Positions 157 through 60,400 of a DNA stretch of 64,000 bases are shown in pieces. The stretch is taken from NCBI GenBank assembly GCA_947623455.1, contig OX392543.1, positions 17,172,757 to 17,236,756 of the forward strand. The letters run 5' to 3'. The notes below the pieces were generated by a model. The model did no database searches. It was not told the origin of the DNA and saw only the letters and a list, made by a program, of their open reading frames with translations. Position 1 is the first letter of the stretch. Every line of letters begins with the position of its first letter. The DNA is from Mimachlamys varia (taxonomy: Eukaryota > Mollusca > Bivalvia > Pectinida > Pectinidae). A program made the translations under genes and the position numbers.

Positions 157-442
157 CTGTGTTTGAGTTGCTCCAGCCAATCATTGACGTCCGCCTCGTC
201 GTTGGTTACCATCAGAGTGGCAGGCGCGTCACATGTTCCATGTTCGTTGGTGATTGTAATGAGGTACGTGCCAGCATCCTTCTTCTGTACGGATCTGATT
301 TCGAGGACCTGTTCATCTGTCTCCTCATCGTAAAACACGTGGTATTTCTTATCGTCTTTGATTTTCTGCCATTTACCCTTGGACCACGCGATAGTGGGTT
401 TGGGCTCTCCGTCGGGGATACAGCGGAACATGGCCATAGCTC
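157..442 (-). CDS. e44: Ig domain 15 and following tail (last exon in window)
   Basis: The 286-nt exon is phase 1-2: AMAMFRCIPDGEPKPTIAW, EQVLEIRSVQKKDAGTYLIT and NEHGTCDAPATLMV. It continues into DEADVNDWLEQLKH and a donor CACAG/GTAGGT, so the gene goes on to the left. The W-LEQLK tail after an Ig is helix-prone and may begin a new kind of linker. Confidence 0.91.
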
Positions 443-33400: not shown

Positions 33401-36400
33401 AGCTCCAGAGTGCTCTCCCCTTCCTTACTTTCCGTGACCTTGTAGATCTCGTCAGTGGCGATCGGCTCTGTGCCGTAGTACCATTGGAGGGTCGGGGCCG
33501 GTGAACCGGATGCCTTGGCGATAAACTGGACAGGTTCTCCTTCTTTTGCGACTGCCTTGTCAATCTCGACTGTGACTGAGGGAGCCACAAGGTCATCAAC
33601 CTACAATCCGCAACAACATTTGAATTTCTGCAATATTGTAAATTTCTAAAATATTACAGAAAATTATCTTTCAAAACAGAATTAAAAGATGTCGCGACAG
33701 TTACATAGTCATAAGAGATCCTAAAACAAGCATTGTATGTTTAAATAAAAGTTAATATGATCTTGGTAAAATTTTCTTCATTTGAAAGACCAATAGGTAT
33801 TAAGTCAAACGTGCAGTAAGAAATCACTCTTAGAAAGTTTTTGAACAGCAAATCAAGTGTAGACAACGATGAAATTGATGACGTCACAATAGTAAATGTT
33901 GTTATAGTCTTATAGCAACATTTGCCTTTGCAATGCATTACAAATTCATGAAAGGATGCAGAGCAAATGTAAATATCTACATGTAAAATCTCACGAAGTA
34001 GATCACCTACCTTCTGGATCTCTGACACCTGTTCCTCTGTGATGAGGCCGGCTGAGACGTCTCTGTTGGAGGAATCAAAAGATACATTAATTTGGTTCCA
34101 TAGTACAGGCACTTTATAAACTGGTGCAAGTTACGAGACGGCATGCTGTGTATTACAAATAAATCCACAGGAACAGTTCAGCCTGTTACTGAACTAATAA
34201 GGTAATAAAAACCGTGTAAACTTGTAATATTATACAAAATACTGTTTAATCACCAGGAGAAATCACTTTTGTTATCGGTCGTACTTCTTTTGAATCATAC
34301 ATGTACTTAAATATCAATATTGATTATGATTTCTGATTTTCACTTATAACGTAGAGATATCAAAACAGACGGAAGCAAACAGTCATAAAGCAAAAACACC
34401 ACTGAAAGAACGACAGTCAGTATAAACTTCACACAGTATTAATACAAATATACTGGTCAATTATCGAAACATGAATTTTGACTTTTCACTAGAATTAGAC
34501 TTTATTTTGATTGGCATAAAAAACAACACTTTCAAACAACAATATCAAAAAACCTTCATCACTCAAAACATCAATTCATTAATTATTTGATTAAATCATT
34601 TTTTCCTCATTTTCAAAAGTACCTGGCAAGAGATTAATACCTTTTTCTAGCAAAATTTATCTAGCATTTCTTCACTAGGAACATTAGATACAAACACACA
34701 TTTTATCCTCAGCAACCAAACTTCAAATCCAACTCAGTACTATGGGTCTTGTTGCCATGGTAACAGAGCCCATTTCTCACCTTGACCTCATCGTAAAAGG
34801 TCGTAATACATTTCTGAAGTCTAGAAGTCCAGGCGGAGACTTATAACTGAAACAGTTTTGTCTGTGGGAAAGGTACGCAAGGAGAAATTACAGAACTTGA
34901 CAAACTACTCGAATGTGACGCTTTACAAAATACAAGTGTAAGTATCTAAAGAGATTATATGAAAGTAAAAAATATAAACTTTATTTATTTTACAACAATT
35001 ATGAAACAAGCTATACAATTTATATTAATCACTCTTGTTGGCCTGGATGTTAGCGTGTGAGAGGTCTTATTGTGGGAGGAAACCAGAGTACCCAGAGAAA
35101 ACCCACGTGGTCGGGCAGGTGACCCGTACCTTTTCACGTCCGATCAGGGAATAGAACCTCGGTGAAAGGTAAGTGTGCTATCCACTGCACCACCCGACCC
35201 CCCCAATTATATGAAAGTAAATACCATTCATTTCAGATGGTGATCAAAAATAATAAATTTAAAAAAAACAACTCAAAATTACTTTAGTAACAACATTTGG
35301 AAAAAGATTATAAAATGCTACGAACTTTTTGTGTTCACTGCTTTTCAGCCCATTCACCCTAAAGTAACTTTGAACCATACTAGATCATAGACTGAGCAAG
35401 TCCATTATGAAATTGTAGGGGTGATCGGGTAGAAAAAACCTGAAATGCTACGTACACTTGTGTTCTGGTGACTTCAGAGGTTTCCACGGTTTCCTGGACA
35501 GAAACAACTTGTTCCGATTCTACTGTCTGTGTAACTTCCTGTGTGATGACTTCCGTTGTTGAAAAAGTCTCCTCCTGAATAACTTCTTCTGCAAAATTTA
35601 AGAAAACAATTTCATCAAATTTTCTTCGCATTGAAAGAGGGTTTGAGAAAAATCCTAAGCCAATAGTCAAAGATATTATTTCAGTTTAAATTTCTTAAAG
35701 AATGCCTTCTTTCTTCTCGCTTCAATATCGAATTGACAAATCATATGTTATAAACTTAAATTTCCTTAAAACATGAAGGGAATAAGTTTTGACGGGGAAA
35801 AAAACCCAAGAAAAATTTTAAAAATCTCAATCTATCAGGACATTACTTTCAAAACTTCCCCCCCAACCCAAAAAAAATCTGCTAAAATATTATTTTATTG
35901 CAAGTAAGTTCATTAACTCAAACATACCTGTCACTGTGAGTGTTGCTGTGGCAACAGCTTCACCAGCTTCGTTGACAGCTTTGACTGTATACTTGCCAGT
36001 GTCCTCTGGGAACACTTCTGGCAGTTCGAGAGTGCTCTCCCCTTCCTCACCCTCGGTGACCCTGTAGATCTCGTCAGTGGTGAGGACTTGGTCGTCATGG
36101 TGCCACGAAATAGTGGGGGTCGGCTTTCCTGTGACCTTTACGAAAAATTTGACGGGTTCGCCTTCTTTGGAAACCACGCTTTCGATCTTGGTCTCGAATC
36201 TTGGTGCGACCAGTTCGACCTAAATAGACAGGTTTTATAAATGTGTTTAAGGATAAATGCTACCTTAATGTCATGACAAAAGAGTTACAACAAACAAACA
36301 AACTTCAATAAAATATCATTTAAGAAGGATAGTTTGTATTTTGATGTAAGTTTACGTGATACAGGATGTGACTGGATACCAATAACACTACACTCACGTG

Positions 36401-39400
36401 ATGAAGGACATCGCGGAAGTCCACTTGTTCTGCGGTAAGGACTTCTTTCTCCGATTCCTCCACGGTCCTGAAACAATAGAAATACGCCATTGAGGAACAC
36501 ACCTGTATGAGCCACACAATCTGTTAACTTTCAAGTCATTCACAGATATAACTTCAGGGGCAACATAAACCTTTCAATTCAAAGGTTGGAAAAGTCTATA
36601 AAGAAATTTCAGGGGTGAAGAAGTTTCGCATAAAGATACTTATAACTATGATAATATGATTTTATGGAATAATCTATATTTCAACTTCTGAGTTGAATTA
36701 AAAATTAATTTGGACCCTTCAGATCAAAACAATCAACATATACTAAATGATAAAAATAATCAACATTTCTCAATGAATGACATGTTCAAATAAAAAGGAC
36801 TTTGATCACATGTATATTACAGTTTTTCAAATGCATAAATCCTGCAAAAAGAAAAAAGAGAGAAAGAGGAAAAAGAAGAAGAAGAATGATCCATCTGTTG
36901 AGGAAGACTCTGAAATAAATTCAACTCACTGTTTTTGTAAAATGTCACGGAAGTCTAATTGCTCGGCTTGGTAGCCTTGGGTTCCTACTTTCGTTGTCCT
37001 ATAGTAAACACAAACAAACCATGCAACATGCAAACACCAATCAATCTCACAGTGACAATGCATAATTTTTTTTCTTTTTCTGAAGAAAATCGTGTAATAT
37101 CGAAAATGAAGATATCTAAAAAAATTTTTAAATGTACCTGTGTTAGATAAGAATTCATCAAAAAATAATTTCAACTCCATATGTAATCTAGTATTATTTC
37201 AAACTCCACAAAAGTTTTCCTTTTAACATCAGTTATTTGATTATTTATGATACACCGTAATATCTTTCCAACTCACCATTTTATTCTGTAAATATTTCTT
37301 TGGAGATATAAAAATTAATATCAGAACTAAATCGTTCACAAAGGAGATTCAACATTATTTTTTGTTTGTTTGGCGTCACTACACAGATATCGTCCTAACC
37401 TGCCCTACTGCAGGGTGACATACTTACACCTTTTTCTGTAAGGCGTCGCGGTAGTCGACCTGCTCAGATTCGTAAGTGACCCCAACTTTTGTGGTTCTGT
37501 ATAACACATTAAACCACCATGCACATCACAATATAAATACATGCAAATCAGTCAATAATTCAAAACATTTAAAAGATGCCTTAAGTGATGAATGAAAATT
37601 ATTTCAATTTCAATAAATATTTAATCTCAGTTTTATTCTACATAGCAGTTTTTCTTCTGAGAGGAGTTGATTCCTAAAGTTGTCCCCTCTCTGGTCATAA
37701 CCTGGAGTTATATTCCCTTTGTCCCTCTTTTATAGTAAAATCTGTAGGATTTCATACCCCTTTATGGTCCAATTCTAATTTTACCCCCTCCCCCTGCCAT
37801 GTCAAGTTCTAAAGTTAGGCCCCTCTGGTCTATTCCAGAGTTATTTCCCTTGGACGTCTCTTACAGTTACCTCTACTTAGTCCTATTCTAAAGCAAAACC
37901 CAATCCTCCATCCCTTGGTCCTAATTCTCGAGCTAGCCACCTCTCCCCAAAACCTTTGTTTTATTCAAGAGTTAACTGTCCATCCCACGAACCCACAAAC
38001 CTTACTTTTATTAACCCCCTGGTCCTATTATAGAGTTATCTCTCTTGAATAATGAAGCTATCATCCCTCAACACCAGTTTTTTCTGTGCTTATCTCCCCT
38101 TTATTTAAGAAGTACTCACACTTCCCTCTGGAGGGTGTCTCTATAGTCCACCTGTTCAGAAGCATAGACTGTGCCAACCTTGGTATCGCTGTATCATCAA
38201 AACCATGCAAGTAAGTCACGCAATAGGAGACACATGCAAACATGACAGTCATCGTGTTGATTTATAGTACATAATTATACATTACACGTTATCACAGTCA
38301 TGCTATATAAACATTGTCCAATAATTGTATTTTTAATGCAACGTCCATATCCATCCATGTTAAAATGAAATAATGATTTATCAAGACAATTGAATAAGAT
38401 AATTTATGAAATTTCTTTTTTTTCTGCAATTTTGAATCTATCAGATAATCTTCATGTTAAAGTTATGTAAATTTATCTCAATAACAGTGGGAAAACAAAT
38501 CTAGATTTAAAAAAAAAAAGATTTTTCCCCCCCAAAAAGAACCGTTTAAATTACTTACACCTGACGCTGGAGTGCCTCTCTATAATCAACCTGTTCCATG
38601 GCAAAAGACGTGCCCACCTTGGTTTGCCTAGATATCAAATTTCGACAGACTCGTCAGTTTATTGTGTCAGAGCACAGTTTTAGAACAAATTGTTGGTGTT
38701 GGAATTATATTTAATTCTAAATCAACTTCTGTTCGTATCAGTTTTCTGAGAAATTCCAAATTTTCAGGCTAATTTTTTTTGTCAAATATTGATAAAGCTC
38801 TTTGATATTTTACAATTTGGAAAAACTTTCTAGAAAAAAGTTTCTAGGTTCAGTACTTACACCTGCGTTTGAAGAGCATCTCTGTAATCAACCTGTTCTG
38901 TCGCGAAGGTCGTTCCAACTTTAGTTTTCCTATTTCATCAAAGTTCATGCAGGTTAAAACACAATCATGCAATGCATAGTAAAAAAAACATGAAAGACAG
39001 TAATTCCCTCGGTCAGTCATAAAAACTTTTCGCCCGCGGTAACTTAAAAGTAAACTGTACTGTACTTGGATCAGCCCATTATGGTTCAGTGATGAAACGG
39101 TTAACAATGCATTATGCTAAAATAGTTTCATTTCTGAATTATTTTCCGAACAATATTTTTAAAAAGGGATTAACTATGTAGAATCTTACAATACTGTTTT
39201 CTTTTTTTTAATTTGAATAATTGTGCCGTATCTATAATCATTTATCGTTTATAACTTTTCCAAAAATTTTTGAACTGATATCACCAATGACTACTTACAC
39301 CTGTCGTTGGAGCGCGTCCCTATAATCCACCTGTTCCGCCTGAAAGGACGTGCCAACTTTGGTTTTCCTAACGTGTTAAAAGTTCATGCAAAATTTGACA

Positions 39401-42400
39401 ACATTCCATATATTTCCTAGATCACAAGTCACATGATATATGGCACATGACATACATGTGATTTCTTCCCCTTAACTTTATTTTGATATATTTCAAACAT
39501 CACTTATATTTAATAATTTATCTTAAAGCGTATTTATTATTCACCCCTAAAGACAGATTTTATCTCTTCCAGTTCAAAGGTTGGGCTAGTTCATTAAGAA
39601 ATTTCAAGGGTGAATGAATTAAATAAAAAACAATGGAGCTATTTTTAACCATTTTTTTTTTAAATAAGAGGCAATTTTTACAGCTTCCTTCTGGAATTTT
39701 TGCATATTTTTCAAAAGGTTTCTTTTAGAGGCTATTCGCTATACTCACACTTTGCTTTTGAGACTATCCCTAAAGTCTAATTGTTCTGCTCCAAACGATA
39801 CCCCTTCCTTAGTCCGACTGTTACCAAGGCAACAAACACATCTCATTAGCATGCACGTCATACACAAAAACACATGACGTAATACACAAAAAACAATGAT
39901 GTCATACACAGAAAACTATGATGCAATACACAAAAAAACAATTATGCAAAATACACACATTTATGATATGAAACTGAATGTTTATCATACCAGATCGGAA
40001 AGATATGATGGTGAACGCAAAGTATTTCTTTTTTCGACAAAATATAAAAGTTGGTTTAGAATTCAAGAACTGAGATACAGGAAAAAATTGTGTATAATTT
40101 GTACAGGTACACAGAGTAACAGAGTGTGTCAATATTACGATTTAAGAGATTGATTGATACTTTCAGGAGTCAGGTACTTACACCTGCGATTTGAGTTTGT
40201 CTCGGAAGTCGATTTGCTCGGCAGCATGTGATACACCAACCTTGGTTTTCCTGTTGCCAAATTTGATAATAATGAGTGAACCAAACCATTTATCGAAATT
40301 CAAAAGCTTTGGCTTGTTTTATCAAATGGGTCATTAAGCTTTAAACTAGCTAATATTATATATGACACATTCACGATTTATGTTTTAACTTAAACTTAAA
40401 TTCAATTAGTAATCCCCTCTTTCTAGCTATTATTAAATATATTTTTAATATGAGCATACATTAAAAAAATGTGACCTGTCAAACTACTTTAAAATAAATC
40501 TAGATACCGATGGAAATTCCTTTTTGAAATCTCCCCCTTATAACCATTTTTACTCACACTTAAGTTTTGAGTTTTCCCTGATTTCTCCCTAACAACCATT
40601 TTACTCACACTTAAGTTTTGAGATTTTTCCTGATCTCTCCATCACAACAATTTTACTCACACTTAAGTTTTGAGATTTACCCTGAAGTCCCCCTAACAAC
40701 CATTTTACTCACAATTCAGTTTTGAGATTTTCCTGGAACTCCCTCTAACAACCAATTAACTCACACTTCAGTTTTGAGATTTGTCGTGATTTCCCTCTTC
40801 AAACCATATAACTCACACTTTAGTTTTGAGATTTTCCCTGATCTCCCCCAAACAACCATTTTACTCACACTTCAGTTTTGAGATTTTCCCTGAAGTCCTT
40901 CTGTGCTGGTGCATGCTTTATTCCAACCCTGGTTTTTCTGTGTAACACAATCACATGCTCATTACAACAACATGCAAGAAGAATTACCTCGGATGCAAAT
41001 CATCAACAATATTCACATGTAACAACACAATTTCAAAACGTGCAATACATCCATTTATTTATTCACACTTCTGTGGTAAATCTTCATAAAAAAAAAAACA
41101 ACGAAAGATTTACTTCACAAATACATGATAAATGAGATGAATCCAAATGGCAACACATTAAGAAAAACATACTCCATCGTTGGCAAGTGAAAAGGGAATT
41201 TCATTGGTCCATTTTTTTTTCGTGCAACCAATCAATGCAAGCTATACAAATGATACATCCTGGTTTCTGTAAAGCGTAAGAATGAAGCTGATTTGTGAAT
41301 TGTCAAAGCATGCTAGAAAAATGACTGAAGCTCTTTTTTATACATTCAGAAACTTCACTCCAAGTAGTGTAATAGTTCATTGATAAATATTTGTGGTGAT
41401 ATAGAAGAAAGGGATTTTCATTGGTTGATATTTCAGCCAATAAGACACAAACACAACAGGTAAAGGAAAGGTCATTGACGGTTTAAAGGACATTTCATTC
41501 TGTGACATATTTTGCAATTCGGGAAAGAAGTCCTTACAGGTGTATATATATATATATATATATATAGGTTGTATATTTCAACGGACATCCAATCAAAAAA
41601 CATGACAGGAAAGGTCTTTGATGTTTCCAAGGACAATCAATCAGAAAGGCTATTTCATTGGATGATATATTTAGCCATTCAGGAAAATATACAAAACAGG
41701 TGAATATCATTGGTTGTATAATATTTCGATAGACATCCAATCGGAAAACACGACAGGTACGGTTTGATTTCCTGACAACATCCAATCAAAGCAAGCGTTA
41801 CAAAATACAGGTGTCACCATAGCATTTCTGTGGTGAAGTAACTCACACTTCCTTTAGATGAGCTCTGAAATCCACTTGCGGTGTTGGCTTTTTTAATTTG
41901 AAGCCAATCTTGGGTCTCCTGTGAGAGGACAGCATTTATGAAATTTACGATTTTAATTAACTGATCACCGTTATGTCACATCATGTCGAATGTTTGATTT
42001 TAGTCACATGACCTAAACTGTTATTCATTTTTAGTAAATTTTTTAATCGATAGAAACAAACAGTTAATGCGGGATGATGAAATCACTTATTATTCAGGAA
42101 TTTTGTCTTTTTTTGTTTTTTCTTCTAAAATTCAACTTTATGCACATATTCAAATTCGTCACTGCATAGCAACGCTTGTCAGCTATTGCATGGAATAAAG
42201 CTGATGCCATATTGAATGTGAATGATAAGTGATTTACAAAATTCAATTAAGTTAGTTCAGCGGATGATTTAGCTTTCTAATAAACTAAAACCAAATGTAT
42301 TATGATAATTACAAGGCAACTAAATCAAAAAGAAATTTTCAAATAATTTAACATTTGTAAAGGCAGAGATGAACAGTCATTAGTAATTCACACAGTCTAA

Positions 42401-45400
42401 TCTAATGTTAGAGAAACTAAAAAAGTGAAATTGAAATAAAATCTGTTGCATCTAATAACTTAGCTAAATTAGTTATAAAGCTCACACATCTAGAAAAAGT
42501 GAAATTGATTGTTAAGTTATTTCAATCTTGGAACAATAATTAAAAATTAATCAGTTGAATCAAAAGTCAGTTATATATGCCACCTCCTGCTAGGTCAACA
42601 TACTCTCTAACCAAAGCTTTGGCAGCTAGGTTATACTCTCTAACTTCCGCTTGGTTGCCATACTCTACTTAAGCATTGGATGCTATAATTATACTCTCTA
42701 ACTTCTGCTAGGTAAACATACTCTCTAACCAAAGCTTTGGCTGCTAGATTATAATCTCTAAATAAAGTTATAAGAAATCATGAGGTACTTACACTTCTTT
42801 TTTCAGACTATCACGGAAATCTGTCGTCTTGGGTCCTTCGTCTAGACAAACAAAATGGACATTTTTACCACCAACTCACCTAACTAACTCTCCTGATACA
42901 GAGATAAATATTTTCAATAAAACACCATGTTAAGCTATTTCCACCAGCATTAACCAATATTTTTCAGGAAAAAATAAATAAACAACTCTGACTTACTCTC
43001 TAATCATGGAGGTAAATACTTTCAATGAAATAATTAACAAAGTTGATTCCCTCAGGAGTAAATTTATAAATGTTCTCCAAACCAATTATGAACTTTTCTG
43101 ATCTATTTTGCCATAAATGTAAACATTTTCCCTGACCCCCTTCTCATATTACAGAGATACGCACCTCTGACGAGGAGTGAAACAGATACGTTGGCGTCGC
43201 CTTCCTCGTTTGACGCGGTGACCTTGTAAGTCCCGGCGTCGGCCAGTGTGACCTGGTCTAGTGTCAGACTTGTGTGGTAGGTGTTTTCCTCGGGTAGAGG
43301 CGATGTCTCCACCGTGTATTTGTCTGACGAGGTAAGTACGACTCCCTCCCGTGTCCACATAATCTGTAACGACATACAATCATTGTGAAAAGAATCATCG
43401 AACACAACCAGTGAGCGTTTATAATGTGTGATGCTTTTATGAATAGTAGGACTTCATCTGACAACCGACCAGTGAAACATAATTGTGTACACAAAGGTGT
43501 AAATACTATAAGAGTTGCCCAAAAATCGATGTTGATATGATTTCAAACAAAGATGTAACTCCATCAAAACCAGTTTTCATTTTTTCAGGCACATAATGAT
43601 CTGTTCACAAAATTCTTTGATTCTTGTCTTGCCTTATCTCTTTAAATAATCTTCTGGCATTATATTAAAACATATGTCTCAAAATTCCATTCAATCTTTT
43701 TCTGTATATTCCAAAATATTTGAATAATGTCGCATCCAGTTTGTGATTTCCTATCAACAGCTATTATCATCTAAGGACTGCCACGACTTTGTGGTGGGGA
43801 AAAGCCAGAGAACCCAAAGAAAAAACACTAATCTAAGGCAAGTACCAAACGTTGATTTAAATTTCAAATAAACACAATTTTATTATGAATATGGTACACT
43901 GTTTTGATAATAAAGTAAAATGAAGGACATTGTGTTAAACAGTCTGAACACTCTACTTACGTCTGGCTTTGGTAAAGCTCTGACCATAGCTTCAAAGTGG
44001 ACACTTGACCCGGTCTCCACGTTCTGGAACTTGGGTTTCTTATCAAAGTAGGGGGGGATGCCAGTGATGACCTCTTCAGCAGGCGCTAAAACATTACAAG
44101 TACAGGTTAAAATCCCTGATACAAAATGTCAAAAAAAATCAAAACTGTAAACCAATTTATTTTTGCGGTGACTTAATTTCGTTTTTTTCATATGAAGTGA
44201 TTATTTCTCAGCGATTTAATTATGCAATAAATTCAGGCATAAATCATATGTATATGATAGTACAGTACTCCTACAGCTGGCATACCTCTGTTTGAAACTA
44301 TTTCGCAGCGATTAATTTTCGCTAATTTTAATCAACCACGAAATACGCAAAAATAAGCTGGTTTACAGTAGTTCACTATGAAAGTTCAGTTGTGGATGAG
44401 TTAAAACAGCTAGCAACACAAACCTTCTACAATGAGCTCTGCTGACGACATGGCAGTGCCAAGTTCGTTCTTGGCCACGACTATGTATTTTCCGCCGTCC
44501 TCCACGTAAACATCAGGGATCTCCAGTACGGTAAGGTTGTCTTCGTAGGAGATATTGAATTCCTCACAAGTGGTGAGTGCCTCTTCATCTTTGTACCATG
44601 TGACCTCTGGGCGGGGATGGCCCTCAACGATGCACTGGAATCGTGCACTACCACCATCCTTGGATGTGACGTCCTCAAGTTGTTGGACGATTTCTGGTGC
44701 AGTGCGTTCCTCAAGAATTTCAGCAGCTGTACGAAATAAGGCAAAACTGGGGTAAATATTTTTCAATTTTTTTATTATTTTTTTTTATTTTTTTTTGTTT
44801 TTTTGTTTTTTTTATTTGTGAAGCTTTAGTAAATATTTATACATTTTTTTGTTTATTTTATTTTTTAGGGATTTTTTTAAGGATTTTTTTTGTGAAGCTT
44901 GTCTGGTTTTGATCCCGACTCATACTTACTGACAAGTTCTGGTGATTTGGGTTTTACAACCTCATCAGGAGCAGGAGACTTCTCCTCTTCAGAGACAGCA
45001 TCCTTCTCTTCTTCTAAAACAACAATGTAAATATAAATATAACAGAATAAAGATAATATATAAGTGTCAACATATTAATATGAATTTGAATTACGTAAAG
45101 TCCATAATTTTATTTATTTCATTTTTTTAATTATATCCTAAAAAAACATTTTTGAAATGTTTTTCTCAAATCTTACATAATCTGCCATAAGTATTTTTTC
45201 CAGGATTGAGGCTGTTCACATGCTTTTTAGAGATATTGCCCTTTGTCTGTCATATACAGTTTACAGTTTTATGGAGTTAATGCCCTTACCTGCTGTCACA
45301 AGTTTTTCCTTTTCGGACAGAACTTGTTCAATGGTAAGTTCTGCTTCAATTTCTTCTTTAGTTTCTAAGAAGACAAAAGCATAATCAAAATTATTAAGTT

Positions 45401-48400: not shown

Positions 48401-51400
48401 TCTATGGTCCGTACCATACTATTGTGATTGGAGGGGTTACAGGAAGGAATAGTATGATTCAAAACTATGATAGCAGAAAGATTGAAGAAATATATGGCCA
48501 GGATTTAAAAGGAAATTTGTCTGATAATTTTAATTGCTTTTTTTTCTCTTAATATTCCAAAATATTTCAGTGAATCATTTCTAATGGATCTCAGTGATTC
48601 TAAGGTCATTTCAAAGCAAATTTGATTTGAGAATTCAGAGGCCCATCTAATTTCTTTAAATAATTATAAAAATCTGAAAATGGTATCAGAGCGACGATAA
48701 AAAAAAAAAAAGATAGATGGGTGAATGAAATTATCATCAAATCAAAAGCTTTTCCTGAATAAAAGAACGTAAACGTTGATTTGTTTTTAAACTGCAGCTG
48801 GCCATACGCGCACAAGACAGTTATATCCATAAGCAAGTGACAAAAATGGTGCCATTCTAATAAAGAGCTTAGCGACAGACCAACAGTAACCACGGTAACA
48901 CTTGTACCTGACTCATCAGGCATAATACGCTGGCTCGCTCCCATGGTGGTGTCGCCATCTAGCTGAGAGTCAGGGGCAGATAACCCAAATTGTGATACCA
49001 CATCCTGTGATACACCAATTTCCTCAGAAATGACAGTTTCTGGAGTTTTGGCTTCCTGTTGTATTTCTTCTGGAGCTTCAATAATATCAAGTCCAGCTGT
49101 TATTTCTTCAGTAGATTTGGTTTCTTCTGGAGCCTCAGAGATTACGAGGCCCGCAGAAACATCCTCAGTGGTGTCATCTTCTTTCGATTCTGTAATTACA
49201 AGTTCCTCAGAAACTTCCTCTTTGGTTTCCACACCAACTACAATTTCCTCTGGCATTTCCTCCTTAGTTTCCTCTGGAGCCTCAACTATTTCAAGTCCAG
49301 CCGAGATTTCCTCAGTAGATTTAGGCTCTTCAGGAGCCTCAGAGATGACAAGACCTGCAGAAACATCCTCAGTTGTGTCAACAGGGGTTTCTGTAATGAC
49401 AAGTTCCTCAGAAACCTCTTCCTTGGTTTCTACAGAGACTACAATTTCCTCTGGTATTTCCTCCTTGGTTTCCTCTGGAGCCTCAGAGATGACAAGACCT
49501 GCAGAAACATCCTCAGTTGTGCCAACAGGGGTTTCTGTAATGACAAGTTCCTCAGAAACTTCTTCCTTGGTTTCCACAGAGACTACAATTTCCTCTGGTA
49601 TATCCTCCTTGGTTTCCTCAGGAGCCTCAGAGATGACAAGACCTGCAAAAACATCTTCAGTGGTGTCAACAGGGGTTTCTGTAATGACAAGTTCCTCAGA
49701 AACCTCCTCCTTGGTTTCTACAGAGACCACAATTTCCTCTGGTATTTCCTCCTTGGTTTCCTCAGGAGCCTCAACTATTTCAAGTCCAGCAGTGATTTCC
49801 TCAGTAGATTTAGGTTCTTCAGGAGCCTCAGAGATGACAAGATCTGCAGAAACTTCCTCAGTTGTATCAACAGAGGTTTCTGTCATGACAAGTTCCTCGG
49901 AAACCTCCTCTTCGGTTTCTACAGAGACCACTATTTCCTCTGGTATTTCCTCCTTGGTTTCCTCTGGAGCCTCAGAGATGACAAGACCTGCAGAAACATC
50001 CTCAGTAGTGTCGACAGGGGTTTCTATCATGACAAGTTCCTCAGAAACTTCCTCTTTGGTTTCCACAGAGACTACTATTTCCTCTGGTATTTCCTCCTTG
50101 GTTTCCTCAGGAGCCTCAACTATTTCAAGTCCAGCAGATATTTCCTCAGTAGATTTAGGCTCTTCAGGAGCATCAGAAATGACAATACCTGCAGAAACAT
50201 CCTCAGTTGTGTCAACAGGGGTTTCTGTAATGACAAGTTCCTCAGAAACTTCCTCTTTGGTTTCCACAGAGACTACTATTTCCTCTGGTATTTCCTCCTT
50301 GGTTTCCTCAGGAGCCTCAACTATTTCAAGTCCAGCAGTGATTTCCTCAGTAGATTTAGGCTCTTCAGGAGCCTCAGAGATGACAAGACCTGCAGAAACA
50401 TCCTCAGTTGTGTCAACAGGGGTTTCTGTAATGACAAGTTCCTCAGAAACTTCCTCTTTGGTTTCCACAGAGACTACTATTTCCTCTGGTATTTCCTCCT
50501 TGGTTTCCTCAGGAGCCTCAACTATTTTAAGTCCAGCAGTGATTTCCTCAGTAGATTTAGGCTCTTCAGGAGCCTCAGAGATGACAAGACCTGCAGAAAC
50601 ATCCGCAGTTGTGTCAACAGGGGTTTCTATAATGACAAGTTCCTCAGAAACTTCTTCTTTGGTTTCCACAGAGACTACTATTTCCTCTGGTATTTCCTCC
50701 TTGGTTTCCTCAGGAGCCTCAACTATTTCAAGTCCAGCAGTGATTTCCTCAGTAGATTTAGGCTCTTCAGGAGCCTCAGAGATGACAAGACCTGCAGAAA
50801 CATCCTCAGTTGTGTCAACAGGGGTTTCTGTAATGACAAGTTCCTCAGAAACTTCTTCTTTAGTTTCCACAGAGACTACAATTTCCTCTGGCATTTCCTC
50901 CTTGATTTCCTCTGGAGCCTCAGAGATGACAAGACCAGCAGAAACATCCTCAGTGGTGTCGATAGGGGTTTCGGTAATGACAAGTTCCTCAGAAACTTCC
51001 TCTTTGGTTTCTACGGAGACCACAATTTCCTCTGGTATTTCCTCCTTGGTTTCCTCAGGTGCCTCAACTATTTCAAGTCCAGCAGAGATTTCCTCAGTAG
51101 ATTTAGGCTCTTCAAGAGCCTCAGAGATGACAAGATCTGTAGAAACATCCTCAGTTATGTCAACAGGGGTTTCTGTAATGTAAAGTTCCTCAGAAACCTC
51201 ATCCTTGCTTTCTACAGAAACCACAATTTCCTCTGGTATTTCCTCCTTGGTTTCCTCGGGAGCCTCAGAGATAACAAGATCTGCAGAAACATCCTCAGTT
51301 GTGTCAACAGGGGTTTCTGTCATGACAAGTTCCTCAGAAACCTCCTCCTTGGTTTCTACAGAAACCACAATTTCCTCTGGTATTTCCTCCTTGGTTTCCT

Positions 51401-54400
51401 CAGGAGCCTCAGAGATGACAAGACCAGCAGAAACATCCTCAATGGTGTCTACAGGGGTTTCTGTAATGACAAGTTCCTCAGAAACTTCCTCTTTGGTTTC
51501 CACAGAGACTACTATTTCCTCTTGTATTTCCTCCTTGGTTTCCTCAGGAGCCTCAACTAATTCAAGTCCAGCAGAGATTTCTTCAGTAGATTTAGGTTCT
51601 TCAGGAGCCTCAGAGATGACAAGATCTGCAGAAACATCCTCAGTTGTGTCAACAGGGGTTTCTGTAATGACAAGTTCCTCAGAAACCTCCTCCTTGGTTT
51701 CTACAGAAACCACAATTTCCTCTGGTACTTCCTCCTTGGTTTCCTCAGGAGCCTCAGAGATGACAAGACCTGCAGAAACATCCTCAGTTGTGTCAACAGG
51801 GGTTTCTGTAATGACAAGTTCCTCAGAAACCTCCTCCTTGGTTTCCACAGAGACCATAATTTCTTCTGGCATTTCCTCCTTGGTTTCCTCAGGAGCCTCA
51901 GAGATGACAAGACCTGCAGAAACATCCTCAGTGGTGTCTACAGGGGTTTCTGTAATGACAAGTTCCTCAGAAACCTCTTCCTTGGTTTCCACAGAGACCA
52001 CAATTTCCTCTGGCATTTCCTCCTTGGTTTCCTCAGGAGCCTCAACTATTTCAAGTCCAGCAGTGATTTCCTCAGTAGATTTAGGTTCTTCAGGAGCCTC
52101 AGAGATGACAAGACCTGCAGAAACATCCTCAGTTGTGTCAACAGGGGTTTCTGTAATTACAAGTTCCTCAGAAACTTCCTCTTTGGTTTCCACAGAGACT
52201 ACAATTTCCTCTGGCATTTCCTCCTTGGTTTCCTCTGGAGCCTCAGAGATGACAAGACCTGCAGAAACATCCTCAGTGGTGTCGACAGGGGTTTCTGTAA
52301 TGACAAGTTCCTCAGAAACTTCCTCTTTGGTTTCCACAGAGACTACTATTTCCACTGGCATTTCTTCCTTGGTTTCCTCTGGAGCCTCAGAGATGACAAG
52401 ACCAGCAGAAACATCCTCAGTGGTGTCGACAGGGGTTTCTGTAATGACAAGTTCCTCAGAAACCTCTTTCTTGGTGTCTACGGAGACCACAATTTCCTCT
52501 GGTATTTCCTCCTTGGTTTCCTCAGGTGCCTCAACTATTTCAAGTCCAGCAGAGATTTCCTCAGTAGATTTAGGTTCTTCAGGAGCCTCAGAGATGACAA
52601 GATCTGCAGAAACATCCTCAGTTATGTCAACAGGGGTTTCTGTAATGACAAGTTCCTCAGAAACCTCCTCCTTGGTTTTTACAGAAACCACAATTTCCTC
52701 TGGTATTTCCTCCTTGGTTTCCTCGGGAGCCTCAGAGATGACAAGACCAGCAGAAACATCCTCAGTTGTGTCAACAGGGGTTTCTGTAATGACAAGTTCC
52801 TCAGAAACCTCCTCCTTGGTTTCTACAGAAACCACAATTTCCTCTGGTATTTCCTCCTTGGTTTCCTCAGGAGCCTCAGAGATGACAAGACCAGCAGAAA
52901 CATCCTCAGTGGTGTCGACAGGGGTTTCTGTAATGACAAGTTCCTCAGAAACTTCCTCTTTGGTTTCGTCAGAGACTACTATTTCCGCTGGTATTTCCTC
53001 TTTGGTTTCCTCATGAGCCTCAACTAATTCAAGTCCAGCAGAGATTTCTTCAGTAGATTTAGGTTCTTCAGGAGCTTCAGAGATGACAAGATCTGCAGAA
53101 ACATCCTCAGTTGTGTCAACAGGGGTTTCTATAATGACAAGTTCCTCAGAAACCTCCTCCTTGGTTTCTACAGAAACCACAATTTCCTCTGGTATTTCCT
53201 CCTTGGTTTCCTCTGGAGCCTCAGAGATGACAAGACCTGCAGAAACATCCTCAGTTGTGTCAACAGGGGTTTCTGTAATTACAAGTTCCTCAGAAACCTC
53301 CTCCTTGGTTTCTACAGAGACCACTATTTCCTCTGGCATTTCCTCCTTGGTTTCCTCAGGAGCCTCAGAGATGACAAGACCTGCAGAAACATCCTCAGTG
53401 GTGTCAACAGGGGTTTTGGTAATGACAAGTTCCTCAGCAACCTCTTCCTTTGTTTCTACAGAGACCACAATTTCCTCTGGTATTTCCTCCTTGGTTTCCT
53501 CAGGTGCCTCAACTATTTCAAGTCCAGCAGAGATTTCTTCAGTAGATTTAGGTTCTTCAGGAGCCTCAGAGATGACAAGATCTGCAGAAACATCCTCAGT
53601 TGTGTCAACAGGGGTTTCTATAATGACAAGTTCCTCAGAAACCTCCTCCTTGGTTTCTACAGAAACCACAATTTCCTCTGGTATTTCCTCCTTGGTTTCC
53701 TCAGGAGCCTCAGAGATAACAAGACCTGCAGAAACATCCTCAGTTATGTCAACAGGGGTTTCTGTAATTACAAGTTCCTCAGAAACCTCCTCCTTGGTTT
53801 CTACAGAGACCACAATTTCCTCTGGTATTTCCTCCTTGGTTTCCTCAGGAGCCTCAGAGATGACAAGACCTGCAGAAACATCCTCAGTGGTGTCAACAGG
53901 GGTTTTGGTAATGACAAGTTCCTCAGAAACCTCTTCCTTGGTTTCTACAGAGACCACAATTTCCTCTGGTATTTCCTCCTTGGTTTCCTCAGGTGCCTCA
54001 ACTAATTCAAGTCCAGCAGTGATTTCCTCAGTAGATTTAGGCTTTTCAGGAGCCTCAGAGATGACAAGACTTGCAGAAACATCCTCAGTTTTGTCAACAG
54101 GGGTTTCTGTAATGGCAAGTTCCTCTGAAACCTCTTCCTTAGTTTCTACAGAGACCACAATTTCCTCTTGTATTTCCTCCTTGGTTTCCTCTTGTACTTG
54201 AACAGTTTCAGAAACCTCCTGTTTGGTTTCCTCAGGAGCCTCCTTAAATACCTGTATTTCAGTTTCTGAAACTTGTAGATCTGAAGTTATTTCCTCAGTT
54301 TTTCCAGTGTCCTCTTTGGTAACATCAATTTCAATCACATCTTCTGTTGGTTGTGTTTCCTCTGTCACCTTGATTTCTGAGACTGCCTGTTTGTCAACTT

Positions 54401-57400
54401 GAGAAACTTCTAGTTCCATTGTGACTTCTTCAGTTGTTCCACTGTCCTCTTTGGTAACATCAATTTCAGTCACATCTTCTGTTGGTTGTGTTTCCTCTGT
54501 CACCTTGATTTCTGAGATTGCCTGTTTGTCGACTTGAGAAACTTCTAGTTCCATTGAGACTTCTTCAGTTTTTCCACTGTCCTCTTTGGTAACATCAATT
54601 TCAATCACATCTTCTGTTGGTTGTGTTTCCTCTGTCACCTTGATTTCTGAGACTGCCTGTTTGTCGACTTGAGAAATTTCTAGTTCCATTGTGACTTCTT
54701 CAGTTTTTCCAGTGTCCTCTTTGGTAACATCAATTTCAGTCACATCTTCTGTTGGTTGTGTTTCCTCTGTCACCTTGATTTCTGAGACTGCCTGTTTGTC
54801 GACTTGAGAAATTTCTAGTTCCATTGTGACTTCTTCAGTTGTTCCACTGTCTTCTTTGGTAACATCAATTTCAGTCACATCTTCTGTTGGTTGTGTTTCC
54901 TCTGCAAGTCTAATTTCTGAGACTGCCTGTTTGTCAACTTGAGAAACTTCTAGTTCCATTGTGACTTCTTCAGTTTTTCCAGTGTCCTCTTTGGTAACAT
55001 CAATTTCAGTCACATCTTCTGTTGGTTGTGTTTCCTCTGCAAGTTTGATTTCTGAGACTGCCTGTTTGTCAACTTGAGAAACTTCTAGATCCATTGTGAC
55101 TTCTTCAGTTTTTCCAGTGTCTTCCTTTGTCACTTCAATTTCAGTCACTTGTTCCAATGGTTGTTCATCTTCAACACCCTTAACTTTGGATGACACGGTG
55201 ATATTAACTTCTGATTGTTGTTCGTCTTTTTTAACTTCGTGTGTTATCGCAGTGACGCCACGTTCCTCTTCAAGATCTGTCACAGACTCCGACACATCTG
55301 AGATTGGTATATCTTTTACTTGTGATATAACAGTTAAATCTTGTGATTTGTCCTTGGGCTGATAAACTGTCATTTCCTCAGAAACTGTCTCTATTTCTTT
55401 TGAACTAATATCTGAAAGAGTTATCTGCCCCTGAATATCGAGAGTGGTCTCCCTCGCCACAGATAGGGTGATGTCGCTTTGACCTATCTGAGGCTGAGAC
55501 ACGTCACTTTCCACGTCAACGGCTGCTGAGAAAGGATATACATAAGACAGTGAGGTCAGGGATCAGAGGTTACATTGGGGTCAAATAGAAAGGGCAGGGT
55601 TCAAAGGTCAAATGATAAAACAGGTTGAAGAGATCAATTTCATGTCTATAAGAACAGAGTTCACAGGTTTAACTCGACACAGTAGGAAGGGGTTTTGTGG
55701 TTTGTAAGAACAAGTGAATATAAACATAAAAGTCACAAAATTACATCACGGTTGTGTACTGAAGGAAAATACTAGGCATATCGTACTGCAGCGTTATCAC
55801 TGAAAGTCAACTATGATTTTATCTCGACAATCCAAAATGAGGGCATACTGCTATGTTCGGTAGGATATCAGGAAAGTAATCAATCATTGGCAACAGAAGT
55901 ACATTCAAAATCTTATATTTACTGTTTCGGTCAAATTCTTAATATAATTTGATGTAAGAAGTACTAAACAACAAAATTACAAAAAAGTTAAAAAAAAAAA
56001 AAAAATGATAATTTGCTTAGATATTTTAACGCCAAACAGCAAAATTGCGAAATCATATTAATTAATTCCAGTAATCAATGGAGATTCTGATTTCAACTTA
56101 GTAAATTGTAAACCAACTTAATGAGAATCTTTAGAATTTATCAGCACAATTGTTGCCAGTACATGAAGAAATGTTTGTTTTTGTGCATGAGAACCCACAA
56201 CCAGGAGGAAACGGCAACAAGCAGTATCTTACCTTCAGTCTTCGATACTACGTCAATCGTCACCTCAGCTACAGACTCCTCAAGTTTTTCCTCCGGAGCT
56301 GGATAGGAAAATAGCAGAGGAATATTTAATTGATTATTATATGAGTAATAATTCTTAAATATGATTCAAATGTAAACATTATCAGAATTTTCTAACACCT
56401 CACTTATACAATACACATTAAAGTAATTTTTACATTTCAAGTTTTTCATGTATCAATGTTTACAAATTCATTATTCAAAATTCATTCATTTTCAATAAAA
56501 AATTAAATTAAATGTACTTTTATAAATTGTGTAGTTCTTTTTTTAGAAAGTTATTACTTTTATTTCCTGTAATATTTTTGCATATCAATTGCTGGTGCTT
56601 TTCTATAGAATCAAAATATTAATTTTCAAATTTTTCATGTATCAATCATCACAAATTCATAATTCAAAATTCATTCATTTTCAATAAAAATGAAATGAAA
56701 TATAATATTATATATTGTGCAGTTTTTTTAAAAAGCTATTGCTTTAATTTTTTTGGAATATTTTTGTTTATCAGTTGGTGGTGCTTTTCCTTCTGATTAT
56801 GAACATATCCTTATGGGGGTGTGCATGCTATTCTTAAGGGATACTCAAATTATACGTGTTTATGATGAAATCTCAATATTCATTCATAATTATTATAATT
56901 ATGCACAGATAAATTTTTACAATTAAATATTGGAAACCACAGTACAATACTTACCAATATCTTACAATTTAGTATTTTATCACAATAAAAAATAATCTTA
57001 GAATTGTGCATTTTTACTAATTTAAAACACATTTAAAAATTCTTGTCAGGCTTAATTATCAAGCCAATCCAAGTCATGATAAAACTTACAGTTATTAAAT
57101 TAATGTATTAATAACGGCTTAATTATTAACCTAATAATTGCGTGCCATTCCATAGCTCAAGGAACACTGTTTCATTGCAGCTATTCTTTCATAAAAATGC
57201 ATTTTAGTTGAATAAAAAAAATCTGAAATGATAACAATGGTTCTCTTCTTCGAAGCTGCCAGAAAATAAGGACTAAAAGATGGCAAATAAATAAAATAAC
57301 TTTATAAATAAAAATTTAGCAAGACACATTCAACTATTCTTTCTTAAAAACACAATTAAGTTAAAGAATAAAAGAGCTACCAGTTCTCAAATGAAACATT

Positions 57401-60400
57401 GAAACATTTTCTGACAAAATGTCCAAGAATGGTCACATATATGTTCAAAAAAAAGAAAATTTAGCAAGACACATTCAGTTAAAAATAGCATAACATTAGC
57501 ATTATATCTAAAATATGAATTAAGGTGAATACTGATCTATTACAGACAGTGTCCAACAACAACACTTAATTACCAGGCTGTGACAGAAGAAAGTCTATGG
57601 CTTTTGCAGTAGGGAGATAGTCTATGCCCTAACAGCAGGGAGATAGTCTACACCCTGAAGGAGCGAGATAGTCTAGGCCCTGACAGCAGGGAGAAAGGTT
57701 TAGATACAGTCAAACCTGACAATATAATAATATATATATCATTTTCTGAAAATTGACAAAAACTTAATTTTGTTTTTGAAAATTTGGAAAAATGTGAACT
57801 GTCTTAAACAGCTCAATGTTCAAATTTATCTTCTCTGACAGTAAATTTTTCATCATGAAATTTCCTGGTGGCAGGGTTGACTGTCATGCATGAGTAGATC
57901 ATTTCTAGCACATTGTGTTCCCTCTTTGTGAGGGTGTATATCTAACATTAGTGAATACCCAGACAAGAGACATAACTCATTTTGGCAAAGAGTTGGGAGG
58001 ATGAAGAAATAGGTATTTCTCTGCTGAGCAGTTTATCTATTTTCAAAAATCAAATAGATTGAAATTGAAAAAAAAATAAGATAATAATTTCTGATAAAAC
58101 CCTAACAAGAGATATTTGAATCTCTATCAGAATATGCTTTTTTAAACTGAAATCTGAAAATTTCATACCTTGAGAAAAATTTTTATCACTAATACTTCAT
58201 TTTAACAAAATTCATAACCTGTATCTTTCGATTTCCGCAAAACTTTCAGAATTTTTGTTTTCATTAAATAAAATATAGGACTTTCTAATCATAACAACAC
58301 ACATCAAAACATTTTCTGTTATATAGAGTTAGAGTAATGTCCCTTGTATGACTGCTGTAAATGAAAAAAGATTAATCCAATGTATTTGACACAATATCTC
58401 TGTATTTACATATGCCTTGGTGACTCCAAAGTGCAACCCAACACTTCAGGGAATGTTGTGAAATGCTACGCTATGTTATATGTTGCAAAATGATATTTTA
58501 TTTTCAACCCTGGTTGAATAATTTTCATATTGAAATATTGTTTTCAAGGAAAAGATATAATTTCAACACAGCTAAGAAATCACAACGTTCTTCAAGTAAT
58601 GGGTTTACAGGATCTTAGTATCAGAGGGTCTATTAGTCTATAAGAGCGTACGAGCCATTCCAAGTAACGCATCGCAAATAGGCGCATAGCTAGAACCCAG
58701 TTCACAATCAAAAGCAGTCTGATGGCACATCCAATCATGCCTCACCATGTGCTGGGGCAGACTTGGTCAGCTCCTGGTCAGTGCTGGTCAGCGCTGTGTC
58801 CTGTGGCCCAATATCTACCTCACTTATTTGTGAAAGGGTAGGGGTTATATCTAGATCAGAGACAGATTCACTTACAGGCAGAGCTACAGTACTCGACATG
58901 TGTTCAGGCTTCTCCTCCTCAATCACAATTTCAGCCTCAACCTGTTCTGGTTTCTCTTCCTCAAGAACAATTTCAGCTTCAACCTGTTCTGTTTTCTCTT
59001 CTTCAAGAACAATTTCAGCTTCAACCTGTTCAGGTTTTTCTTCCTCAAGAACAATTTCAGCCTCAACCTGTTCAGGTTTGTCCTCCTTAATGACAATTTC
59101 AGCCTCAACCTGTTTTTGTTTCTCTTCCTCAAGAACTATTTCAGCCTCAACCTGTTCTGGTTTCTCTTCCTCAAGAACAATTTCAGCCTCAACCTGTTCA
59201 GGTTTTTCTTCCTCAAGAACAATTTCAGCTTCAACCTGTTCAGGTTTTTCTTCCTCAAGAACAATTTCAGCCTCAACCTGCTCAGGTTTGTCCTCCTCAA
59301 TGACAATTTCTGCCTCAACCTGTTCAGGTTTGTCTTCTTCAATGACAATTTCAGTCTTAACATGTTCAGGTTTGTCTTCTTCAAGAACAATTTCAGCCTC
59401 AACCTGTTCAGGTTTGTCCTCCTCAATGACAATTTCAGCCTTTACCTGTTCAGGTTTGTCTTCTTCAATGACAATTTCAGCCTCAACCTGTTCTGGTTTA
59501 TCCTCCTCAAGAACTATTTCAGCCTCAACCTGTTCTTGTTTCTCTTCCTCAAGAACAATTTCAGCCTCAACCTGTTCAGGTTTCTCTTCTTCAAGAACAA
59601 TTTCAGCCTCAACCTGTTCAGGTTTGTCCTCCTCAATGACAATTTCAGCCTCAACCTGTTCAGGTTTGTCTTCTTCAATGACAATTTCAGTCTTAACATG
59701 TTCAGGTTTATCCTCCTCAAGAACAATATCTGCCTCAACCTGTTCTGGTTTCTCTTCCTCAAGAACAACTTCAGCCTCAACCTGTTTTGGTTTCTCTTCC
59801 TCAAGAACAATTTCAGCCTCAACCGGTTCTGTTTTCTCTTCTTCAAGAACAATTTCAGCTTCAACCTGTTCAGGTTTTTCTTCCTCAAGAACAATTTCAG
59901 CCTCAACCTGTTCAGGTTTGTCCTCCTTAATGACAATTTCAGCCTCAACCTGTTTTTGTTTCTCTTCCTCAAGAACAATTTCAGCCTCAACCTGTTCTGG
60001 TTTCTCTTCCTCAAGAACAATTTCAGCCTCAACCTGTTCTGGTTTCTCTTCCTCAAGAACAATTTCAGCCTCAACCTGTTCTGGTTTCTCTTCCTCAAGA
60101 ACAATTTCAGCCTCAACCTGTTCAGGTTTTTCTTCCTCAAGAACAATTTCAGCTTCAACCTGTTCAGGTTTTTCTTCCTCAAGAACAATTTCAGCCTCAA
60201 CCTGTTCAGGTTTGTCCTCCTCAATGACAATTTCTGCCTCAACCTGTTCAGGTTTGTCTTCTTCAATGACAATTTCAGTCTTAACATGTTCAGGTTTGTC
60301 TTCTTCAAGAACAATTTCAGCCTCAACCTGTTCAGGTTTGTCCTCCTCAATGACAATTTCAGCCTTTACCTGTTCAGGTTTGTCTTCTTCAATGACAATT

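What the first reader, a model, noticed from the sequence alone, without database searches (positions are those of the whole stretch)
36398..42841. Twelve-exon array of DFRxxL actin-binding motifs, one motif per micro-exon
Twelve consecutive small exons (eleven of 69-72 nt or close, plus a 49-nt adaptor) each code one D-[FY]-R-x-x-L preceded by a KTKVGT...AEQ leader. DFRxxL is the known actin-binding motif of smooth-muscle and long MLCK, which carry three to five copies. Twelve separate exon cassettes, five in a DYR form, make an unusually long actin-binding ruler inside a titin-like protein. Cassettes 2-11 are phase 2-2, so any number can be spliced in or out.
Basis: partly seen in the sequence, partly recalled or inferred. 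Interest (0 to 1): 0.82.

Follow-up and report, generated by a model that had tools for sequence, protein, structure and literature searches.

The report
Expanded actin-binding exon array in titin
A giant titin-like muscle gene, apparently from a mollusc, has twelve small consecutive exons that each encode a copy of a motif known as the actin-binding motif of myosin light chain kinase, apparently expanded from the few copies seen in sea-slug and mussel titins, with signals suggesting that the number may be changed by splicing.

Summary
Twelve minus-strand exons at 36398-42841 each encode one D[FY]RxxL; ten are 69-72 nt and phase 2-2, so any subset keeps the frame. They lie in a titin-like gene model of over 200 kb. 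A profile built only from MLCK repeats ranks array exons first among 10,897 ORFs of 264 kb, and the array's 99 hits among 5.8 billion proteins are MLCKs, one unnamed (only two pass E 0.001). Eight cassettes compared show pN 0.28 against pS 0.88, with unrelated introns. New here: molluscan titins carry an orthologous array between the same two Ig domains: 4 motifs in three sea slugs, 3 in a fourth, 2 plus 2 in a mussel. One KTKVG-type motif seems to have multiplied. TGCATG, the RBFOX site, lies within 60 nt upstream of 7 of 12 cassettes but 2 of 164 other exons. Likeliest reading: an alternatively spliced thin-filament tether in titin whose grip depends on the number of cassettes. Actin binding, splicing and any ruler role are untested.

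The parts
58746..63999 (-). E/V/K/P-rich repeat exon (KPEQVEAEIVLEEE type), PEVK-like; runs on beyond the window to 74243 in the model
   Evidence: composition (E 34%, V 13%, K 9%, P 6%)
48908..55525 (-). second acidic repeat exon (about 48-aa units, SVETKEEVSEELVITETPVDTTED...), PEVK-like
   Evidence: composition (E 27%, V 14%)
43961..44085 (-). first exon of the Ig domain upstream of the array
   Evidence: orthologous Ig in five molluscan proteins
43165..43363 (-). second exon of the Ig domain upstream of the array
42793..42841 (-). cassette 1, TDFRDSL, 49 nt, phase 1>2 (5' adaptor)
41847..41918 (-). cassette 2, VDFRAHL, 72 nt, phase 2-2
40869..40937 (-). cassette 3, KDFRENL, 69 nt, phase 2-2
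40182..40250 (-). cassette 4, IDFRDKL, 69 nt, phase 2-2
39749..39817 (-). cassette 5, LDFRDSL, 69 nt, phase 2-2
39299..39367 (-). cassette 6, VDYRDAL, 69 nt, phase 2-2
38861..38929 (-). cassette 7, VDYRDAL, 69 nt, phase 2-2
38559..38627 (-). cassette 8, VDYREAL, 69 nt, phase 2-2
38120..38188 (-). cassette 9, VDYRDTL, 69 nt, phase 2-2
37428..37496 (-). cassette 10, VDYRDAL, 69 nt, phase 2-2
36930..36998 (-). cassette 11, LDFRDIL, 69 nt, phase 2-2
36398..36467 (-). cassette 12, VDFRDVL, 70 nt, phase 2>0 (3' adaptor)
35928..36219 (-). Ig domain exon downstream of the array
   Evidence: orthologous Ig in five molluscan proteins
34781..34861 (-). candidate thirteenth DFR exon (LLDFRNVLRPF), 81 nt, phase 2-2, between the next two Ig exons
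   Evidence: open frame and joins in frame; weak profile scores
40971..40976 (-). TGCATG upstream of cassette 3
39850..39855 (-). TGCATG upstream of cassette 5
39385..39390 (-). TGCATG upstream of cassette 6
38946..38971 (-). two TGCATG upstream of cassette 7 (38946-38951, 38966-38971)
38204..38238 (-). two TGCATG upstream of cassette 9 (38204-38209, 38233-38238)
37518..37545 (-). two TGCATG upstream of cassette 10 (37518-37523, 37540-37545)
37020..37032 (-). two TGCATG upstream of cassette 11 (37020-37025, 37027-37032)

Best explanation
The twelve exons form a tandem array of MLCK-type DFRxxL modules inside a molluscan-type titin. It expanded from a shorter array that other molluscan titins hold between the same two Ig domains, mainly by duplication of a KTKVG..EQxDFRxxL motif. 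Shown: exons and phases, selection on the protein, kinship to MLCK repeats, orthology of array and flanks, TGCATG enrichment upstream. Inferred: each module docks on actin; the array tethers titin to the thin filament between the PEVK-like blocks (N-terminal side) and the Ig/Fn3 part (C-terminal side); and an RBFOX-type factor influences how many modules a muscle includes, and so how firmly titin grips the thin filament.
For: Exons and frame. Selection. MLCK kinship: 99 hits at E<=1 of 4,472 candidates, 98 named MLCK/MYLK and one unnamed quail protein; MLCK-only profile: first four hits, and 10 of the first 12 of 10,897 ORFs, are DFR exons of this locus. Orthology: (five molluscan proteins are the top five of 277 for both flanking Igs, which flank DFR motifs in all five). 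Splicing signals: (TGCATG within 60 nt upstream of 7 of 12 against 2 of 164; pyrimidine content 0.54 against 0.66). Motif as F-actin-binding in MLCK: passages of PMC3317649 and PMC6715661.
Against: No RNA, protein or binding data. Only two of the 99 MLCK hits pass E 0.001; cassettes 7 and 9 score E 54 and 35 and cassette 8 is not in the 25 hits printed, so the DYR forms are further from MLCK. Five of twelve cassettes (1, 2, 4, 8, 12) lack TGCATG, and a human micro-exon study finds RBFOX sites enriched downstream, not upstream (passages of PMC4317164). Automatic gene models may miss 69-nt exons, so the expansion relative to other molluscs could be overstated. The PEVK-like blocks are much more acidic than the name implies. 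No kinase pattern was found in the 264 kb.
Confidence: 0.7

Rival explanations
1. Mutually exclusive choice: the KTKVG-type cassettes are alternatives for the single KTKVG slot seen in sea-slug titins, so one protein carries only a few motifs and the gain is variety, not number.
For: Equal lengths and phases; sea slugs have one KTKVG-type motif at this place; shared upstream element.
Against: A scan for an RNA docking site complementary to the cassette flanks found no outlier: best window z -3.0, against -3.6 in a control intron region. Introns of 233-909 nt between cassettes impose no obvious steric exclusion (general knowledge).
Confidence: 0.13
2. A DFRxxL-like linker array that no longer, or never, binds actin: kept as a flexible spacer or as a site for another partner.
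For: No binding data; five cassettes are DYR and match the MLCK profile less well.
Against: Substitutions are fewest in the DFR core (pN 0.23, against 0.34 in the leader), and D, R and L are invariant in the 11 aligned cassettes.
Confidence: 0.15
3. Decayed or artefactual repeats without a role in the transcript.
For: The same locus does hold such debris: seven 52-bp copies of half an exon in the intron at 40529-40893.
Against: pS/pN contrast in eight cassettes, open frames, splice sites and matching phases in all twelve; orthologous motifs in five molluscan proteins.
Confidence: 0.02

Closest known systems
DFRxxL repeats of smooth-muscle and long MLCK (vertebrates, Ciona)
   Same: AEQ[LMVI]DFRxxLxxxV in tandem at a regular step (28 aa in cow and chicken), next to Ig domains
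   Different: At most 5 copies by the same pattern against 12; 28-aa step against mostly 23; no kinase pattern found here
Molluscan titin models: Elysia chlorotica P0164, Plakobranchus ocellatus P0235, Aplysia californica P0249, Elysia marginata P0264, Mytilus coruscus TTN P0229
   Same: Orthologous place: DFR motifs between the same two Ig domains
   Different: 4, 4, 4, 3 and 4 motifs, irregular steps; in Mytilus two lie between the Igs and two beyond the second
Single post-Ig D[FY]RxxL of insect titin/kettin-type proteins, mammalian titin isoforms and twitchin/projectin
   Same: Motif directly after an Ig domain
   Different: One copy, no array
Vertebrate titin N2A-actin interaction
   Same: Proposed tether of the elastic part of titin to the thin filament that raises stiffness (passages of PMC6167357)
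   Different: Another binding element (Ig80-Ig83 construct), no DFRxxL array
Nebulin repeats (recalled, no call)
   Same: Many short modules thought to follow actin subunits
   Different: Other motif, far more modules; no link tested here

Membership tests
MLCK-type DFRxxL repeat | Sequence match of the repeat unit beyond the hexamer | tested here: met
   several single cassettes (notably 7, 8, 9) do not reach significance with the MLCK-only profile
MLCK-type DFRxxL repeat | Regular tandem arrangement | tested here: met
   Steps of 25, 22, seven of 23 and two of 24 residues
MLCK-type DFRxxL repeat | Binds F-actin | not testable with these tools
   No assay; no solved structure matched the array or the cow MLCK repeats beyond chance
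Myosin light chain kinase | Kinase domain in the same protein | tested here: inconclusive
   Pattern scan of the gene strand over 264 kb found none; a motif split by an intron or lying further on would be missed
Titin | Giant protein of Ig and Fn3 domains with an elastic PEVK-like part | tested here: met
   Gene model (213 exons, 31,338 aa, of which both ends may belong to other genes); Pfam I-set and Fn3; acidic blocks
Titin | Kinase near the C terminus (recalled as a titin-family feature; see also PMC12040844 passages) | tested here: inconclusive
RBFOX-regulated cassette exons | UGCAUG close to the exon in excess of chance | tested here: met
   upstream only, in 7 of 12
RBFOX-regulated cassette exons | Inclusion changes with RBFOX activity | not testable with these tools
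   No RNA data
Mutually exclusive exon cluster | Docking site complementary to elements beside the exons | tested here: not met
   other mechanisms of exclusion were not tested

The most novel reading that the evidence does not exclude
A muscle-tunable titin clutch: an RBFOX-type factor sets how many of ten frame-neutral DFRxxL/DYRxxL exons are included, so each muscle (for example phasic or catch adductor, if the animal is a bivalve) makes titin with a thin-filament grip of graded strength. The grip lies C-terminal to the PEVK-like blocks, so when bound it would take those springs out of play and stiffen the sarcomere.
Probability: 0.3. Interest if true: 0.82.

Novelty: new variant of a known kind. 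Interest (0 to 1): 0.62.

Why it matters
Whether and where titin grips actin in active muscle is still debated for vertebrates (passages of PMC6167357). Here a titin carries a long, modular array of a motif described as F-actin-binding, each unit in its own exon with candidate control sites. If it binds, natural isoforms with different motif numbers would give a titration series for titin-actin grip and stiffness. A scallop study reports titin isoforms enriched in striated or catch muscle (passages of PMC5963113), so suitable tissue exists if the animal is a bivalve.

Tried and rejected
Docking-site scan for mutually exclusive splicing: no outlier. PDB by sequence: nothing for the array, one chance-level match (E 0.12) for the cow MLCK repeats. 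Rfam: no match in the window at gathering scores. Pfam has no family for the array; DUF2501 (E 5e-4) and DUF7487 (E 0.0013) fall inside it below their curated cut-offs and were set aside. Literature searches for DFRxxL, DFR motif, molluscan titin/twitchin, scallop titin, catch muscle and titin-family evolution listed no paper whose title or abstract start concerns DFRxxL in titin; three papers in the library contain DFRxxL at all, of which I read passages of two. The library lacks most subscription journals, and I recall (from no call) reports of a DFRxxL motif in mussel twitchin, so no claim of priority is made. Structure prediction was not run: the spliced array is not a contiguous reading of the window. 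Copies elsewhere in the genome, the animal's own MLCK and its species were not settled, because the whole-genome search was answered only once.

Limits on counts: protein searches see only candidates 0.55-1.75 times the query length; only the 2,370 candidates sharing most words were scored; one search returned nothing longer than 7,855 aa although longer was allowed, so full-length giant titins may be missing from that collection.
Full report
The observation. On the minus strand twelve exons carry one D[FY]RxxL each at the stated place. With splice sites assigned they are 42841-42793 (49 nt, phase 1>2), 41918-41847 (72), then 40937-40869, 40250-40182, 39817-39749, 39367-39299, 38929-38861, 38627-38559, 38188-38120, 37496-37428 and 36998-36930 (69 each), and 36467-36398 (70, phase 2>0); the ten between first and last are phase 2-2. 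They join in frame, without a stop, from the Ig domain of 44085-43961 plus 43363-43165 to the Ig domain of 36219-35928. Steps between motifs in the protein are 25, 22, seven of 23 and two of 24 residues. Nine of twelve have the KTKVG-type leader; the first, second and last do not.

Real and under selection. Leave-one-out profiles score 11 cassettes at 12-58 bits against 5-14 bits for the best of 500 shuffles each (the 49-nt exon was not tested). Between the eight cassettes 40937-37496 synonymous sites are near saturation (pooled pS 0.88) while pN is 0.275, lower in the DFR core (0.23) than in the leader (0.34); flanking introns are at background similarity (0.31 and 0.26). The duplications are old and the copies were kept for their protein sequence.

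The gene. The window lies on a 41.7-Mb contig of an unnamed 975-Mb genome. A simple gene finder of my own, run on the minus strand of 264 kb, gives a chain of 213 exons and 31,338 aa: spectrin-like exons, Ig domains, long acidic E/V-rich blocks, the array, more Ig domains, a long Fn3-rich stretch with some Ig, then very long repeat exons. It missed one cassette (39817). Pfam finds I-set and Fn3 in the pieces tested and spectrin repeats in the first part. Exon borders are predictions, and the spectrin part and the last repeat exons may belong to other genes; the Ig-to-Fn3 part alone spans over 200 kb.

Kinship of the motif. The array region against 5.77 billion proteins (candidates of about 710-2,260 aa) gave 99 proteins at E<=1 of 4,472 candidates: 98 named MLCK/MYLK, one unnamed quail protein (P0036); 98 are vertebrate, one is Ciona savignyi; best E 1.4e-4, two below 0.001. 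By the same pattern 98 of the 99 have four or five motifs and the Ciona savignyi entry two. What is shared is wider than the hexamer: AEQ[LMVI]DFRxxLxxxV. A profile made only from 74 distinct 24-mers of these MLCKs, run over 10,897 six-frame ORFs of the 264 kb, has array exons as its first four hits (best E 4e-4), and 10 of its first 12 hits are DFR exons of this locus: nine cassettes and the candidate exon at 34861-34781; the other two are plus-strand hits. Cassettes 9 and 7 come lower (E 35, 54) and cassette 8 is not among the 25 printed.

Orthologous arrays. A query of the array with flanking Ig sequence, limited to proteins of about 2,000-6,200 aa, brought molluscan titin models. Elysia chlorotica, Plakobranchus ocellatus and Aplysia californica have four motifs each, Elysia marginata three (partial model), Mytilus coruscus four. 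None of the 277 has more than five D[FY]RxxL. By ungapped similarity cassette 1 goes with the first motif; cassettes 3-8 match the third, KTKVG-type, motif of Plakobranchus best; cassettes 9 and 10 score a little higher with the fourth Mytilus motif (54 against 48, 58 against 56); cassettes 11 and 12 go with Mytilus motifs; cassette 2 matches all weakly. The simplest history is expansion of a KTKVG-type motif in this lineage. Automatic models may miss 69-nt exons, so counts elsewhere are lower bounds. A Ciona intestinalis MLCK has its first DFR motif directly after an Ig with a similar end, so an Ig-DFR unit may be older than the split of these proteins (inference).

Splicing signals. Among hexamers in the 120 nt upstream, TGCATG ranks first against 164 other predicted exons of the locus (7 of 12 against 6 of 164, p about 1e-7 before correction for 4,096 hexamers). 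Within 60 nt it is 7 of 12 against 2 of 164; the 11 sites compare with a mean of 1.6 and a maximum of 6 in 1,000 dinucleotide shuffles of the 120-nt flanks; no TGCATG lies within 300 nt downstream. Among other exons of 140 nt or less, 1 of 18 has it (120 nt). All seven are among the ten phase 2-2 exons; cassettes 2, 4 and 8 and both adaptors have none. The ten have fewer pyrimidines before the acceptor (0.54 against 0.66, p 4e-4), though the comparison exons were chosen by a model that scores acceptors. TGCATG is described as the RBFOX site in a paper that finds it enriched downstream of regulated human micro-exons (PMC4317164, passages); a review gives an example of upstream UGCAUG promoting skipping (PMC10835012, passage). 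The direction of any effect here is unknown.

How it most likely works. DFRXXL is described as an F-actin-binding motif of smooth-muscle MLCK (PMC3317649 and PMC6715661, passages). If these modules bind, they hold titin to the thin filament between the PEVK-like blocks and the Ig/Fn3 part; stretch is then borne beyond the tether, and more modules mean a firmer grip. This parallels the model proposed for vertebrate N2A titin (PMC6167357, passages), with a different element. Every step after the sequence kinship is inference. A ruler function has no support.

What is new. The motif and titin are known, and short arrays at this place already sit, unremarked as far as I saw, in public molluscan models. 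New here are recognition of the orthologous array, its expansion to twelve mostly frame-neutral exons, and the TGCATG pattern. Searches named in Tried and rejected listed no account of DFRxxL in titin, in a library that lacks most subscription journals.

The animal. The five best proteins for both flanking Igs are molluscan and the mussel has the highest identity for both, so a mollusc, perhaps a bivalve, is likely; this was not tested further.

Noticed in passing
window 40529-40893: Seven 52-bp tandem copies of the 3' half of cassette 3 with its 5' splice site fill part of the next intron; GTGAGT is kept in every copy, frames are broken. Spare or decoy 5' splice sites, or a plain minisatellite born from an exon.
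   Followed up: partly
window 34781-34861: Candidate thirteenth DFR exon (LLDFRNVLRPF), phase 2-2 and in frame, beyond the downstream Ig, where the Mytilus model also has DFR motifs; weak by profile.
   Followed up: partly
C17, window-frame -70179 to -73910 (L009): Very long repeat exon on the same strand with five AA[KR]DFRAR[L] motifs (DFRARL), mostly 740-750 bp apart, within large repeats; not known to be part of the titin transcript.
   Followed up: no
C17, window-frame 158605-172418 (L019-L020): Spectrin-repeat exons (Pfam spectrin E 8e-14, SESTD1-type spectrin) directly upstream of the first titin Ig. I recall that a spectrin-repeat/Ig gene (CCDC141) neighbours vertebrate titin; possible old synteny.
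   Followed up: no
retrieved proteins P0102-P0104, P0105-P0129, P0143, P0149, P0152: A single D[FY]RxxL, in several cases directly after an Ig end, recurs in arthropod titin/kettin-type proteins, mammalian titin isoforms (REDFRSVLRRAPE) and twitchin/projectin (MDFRAMLKK); it may be an old titin-family feature.
   Followed up: no
window 157-442 and window-frame 127441-127627: Related post-Ig motifs with W in this gene: VNDWLEQLKH and KEDWRSRLRQAPK; Lingula titin has EDWRAQLKH.
   Followed up: no
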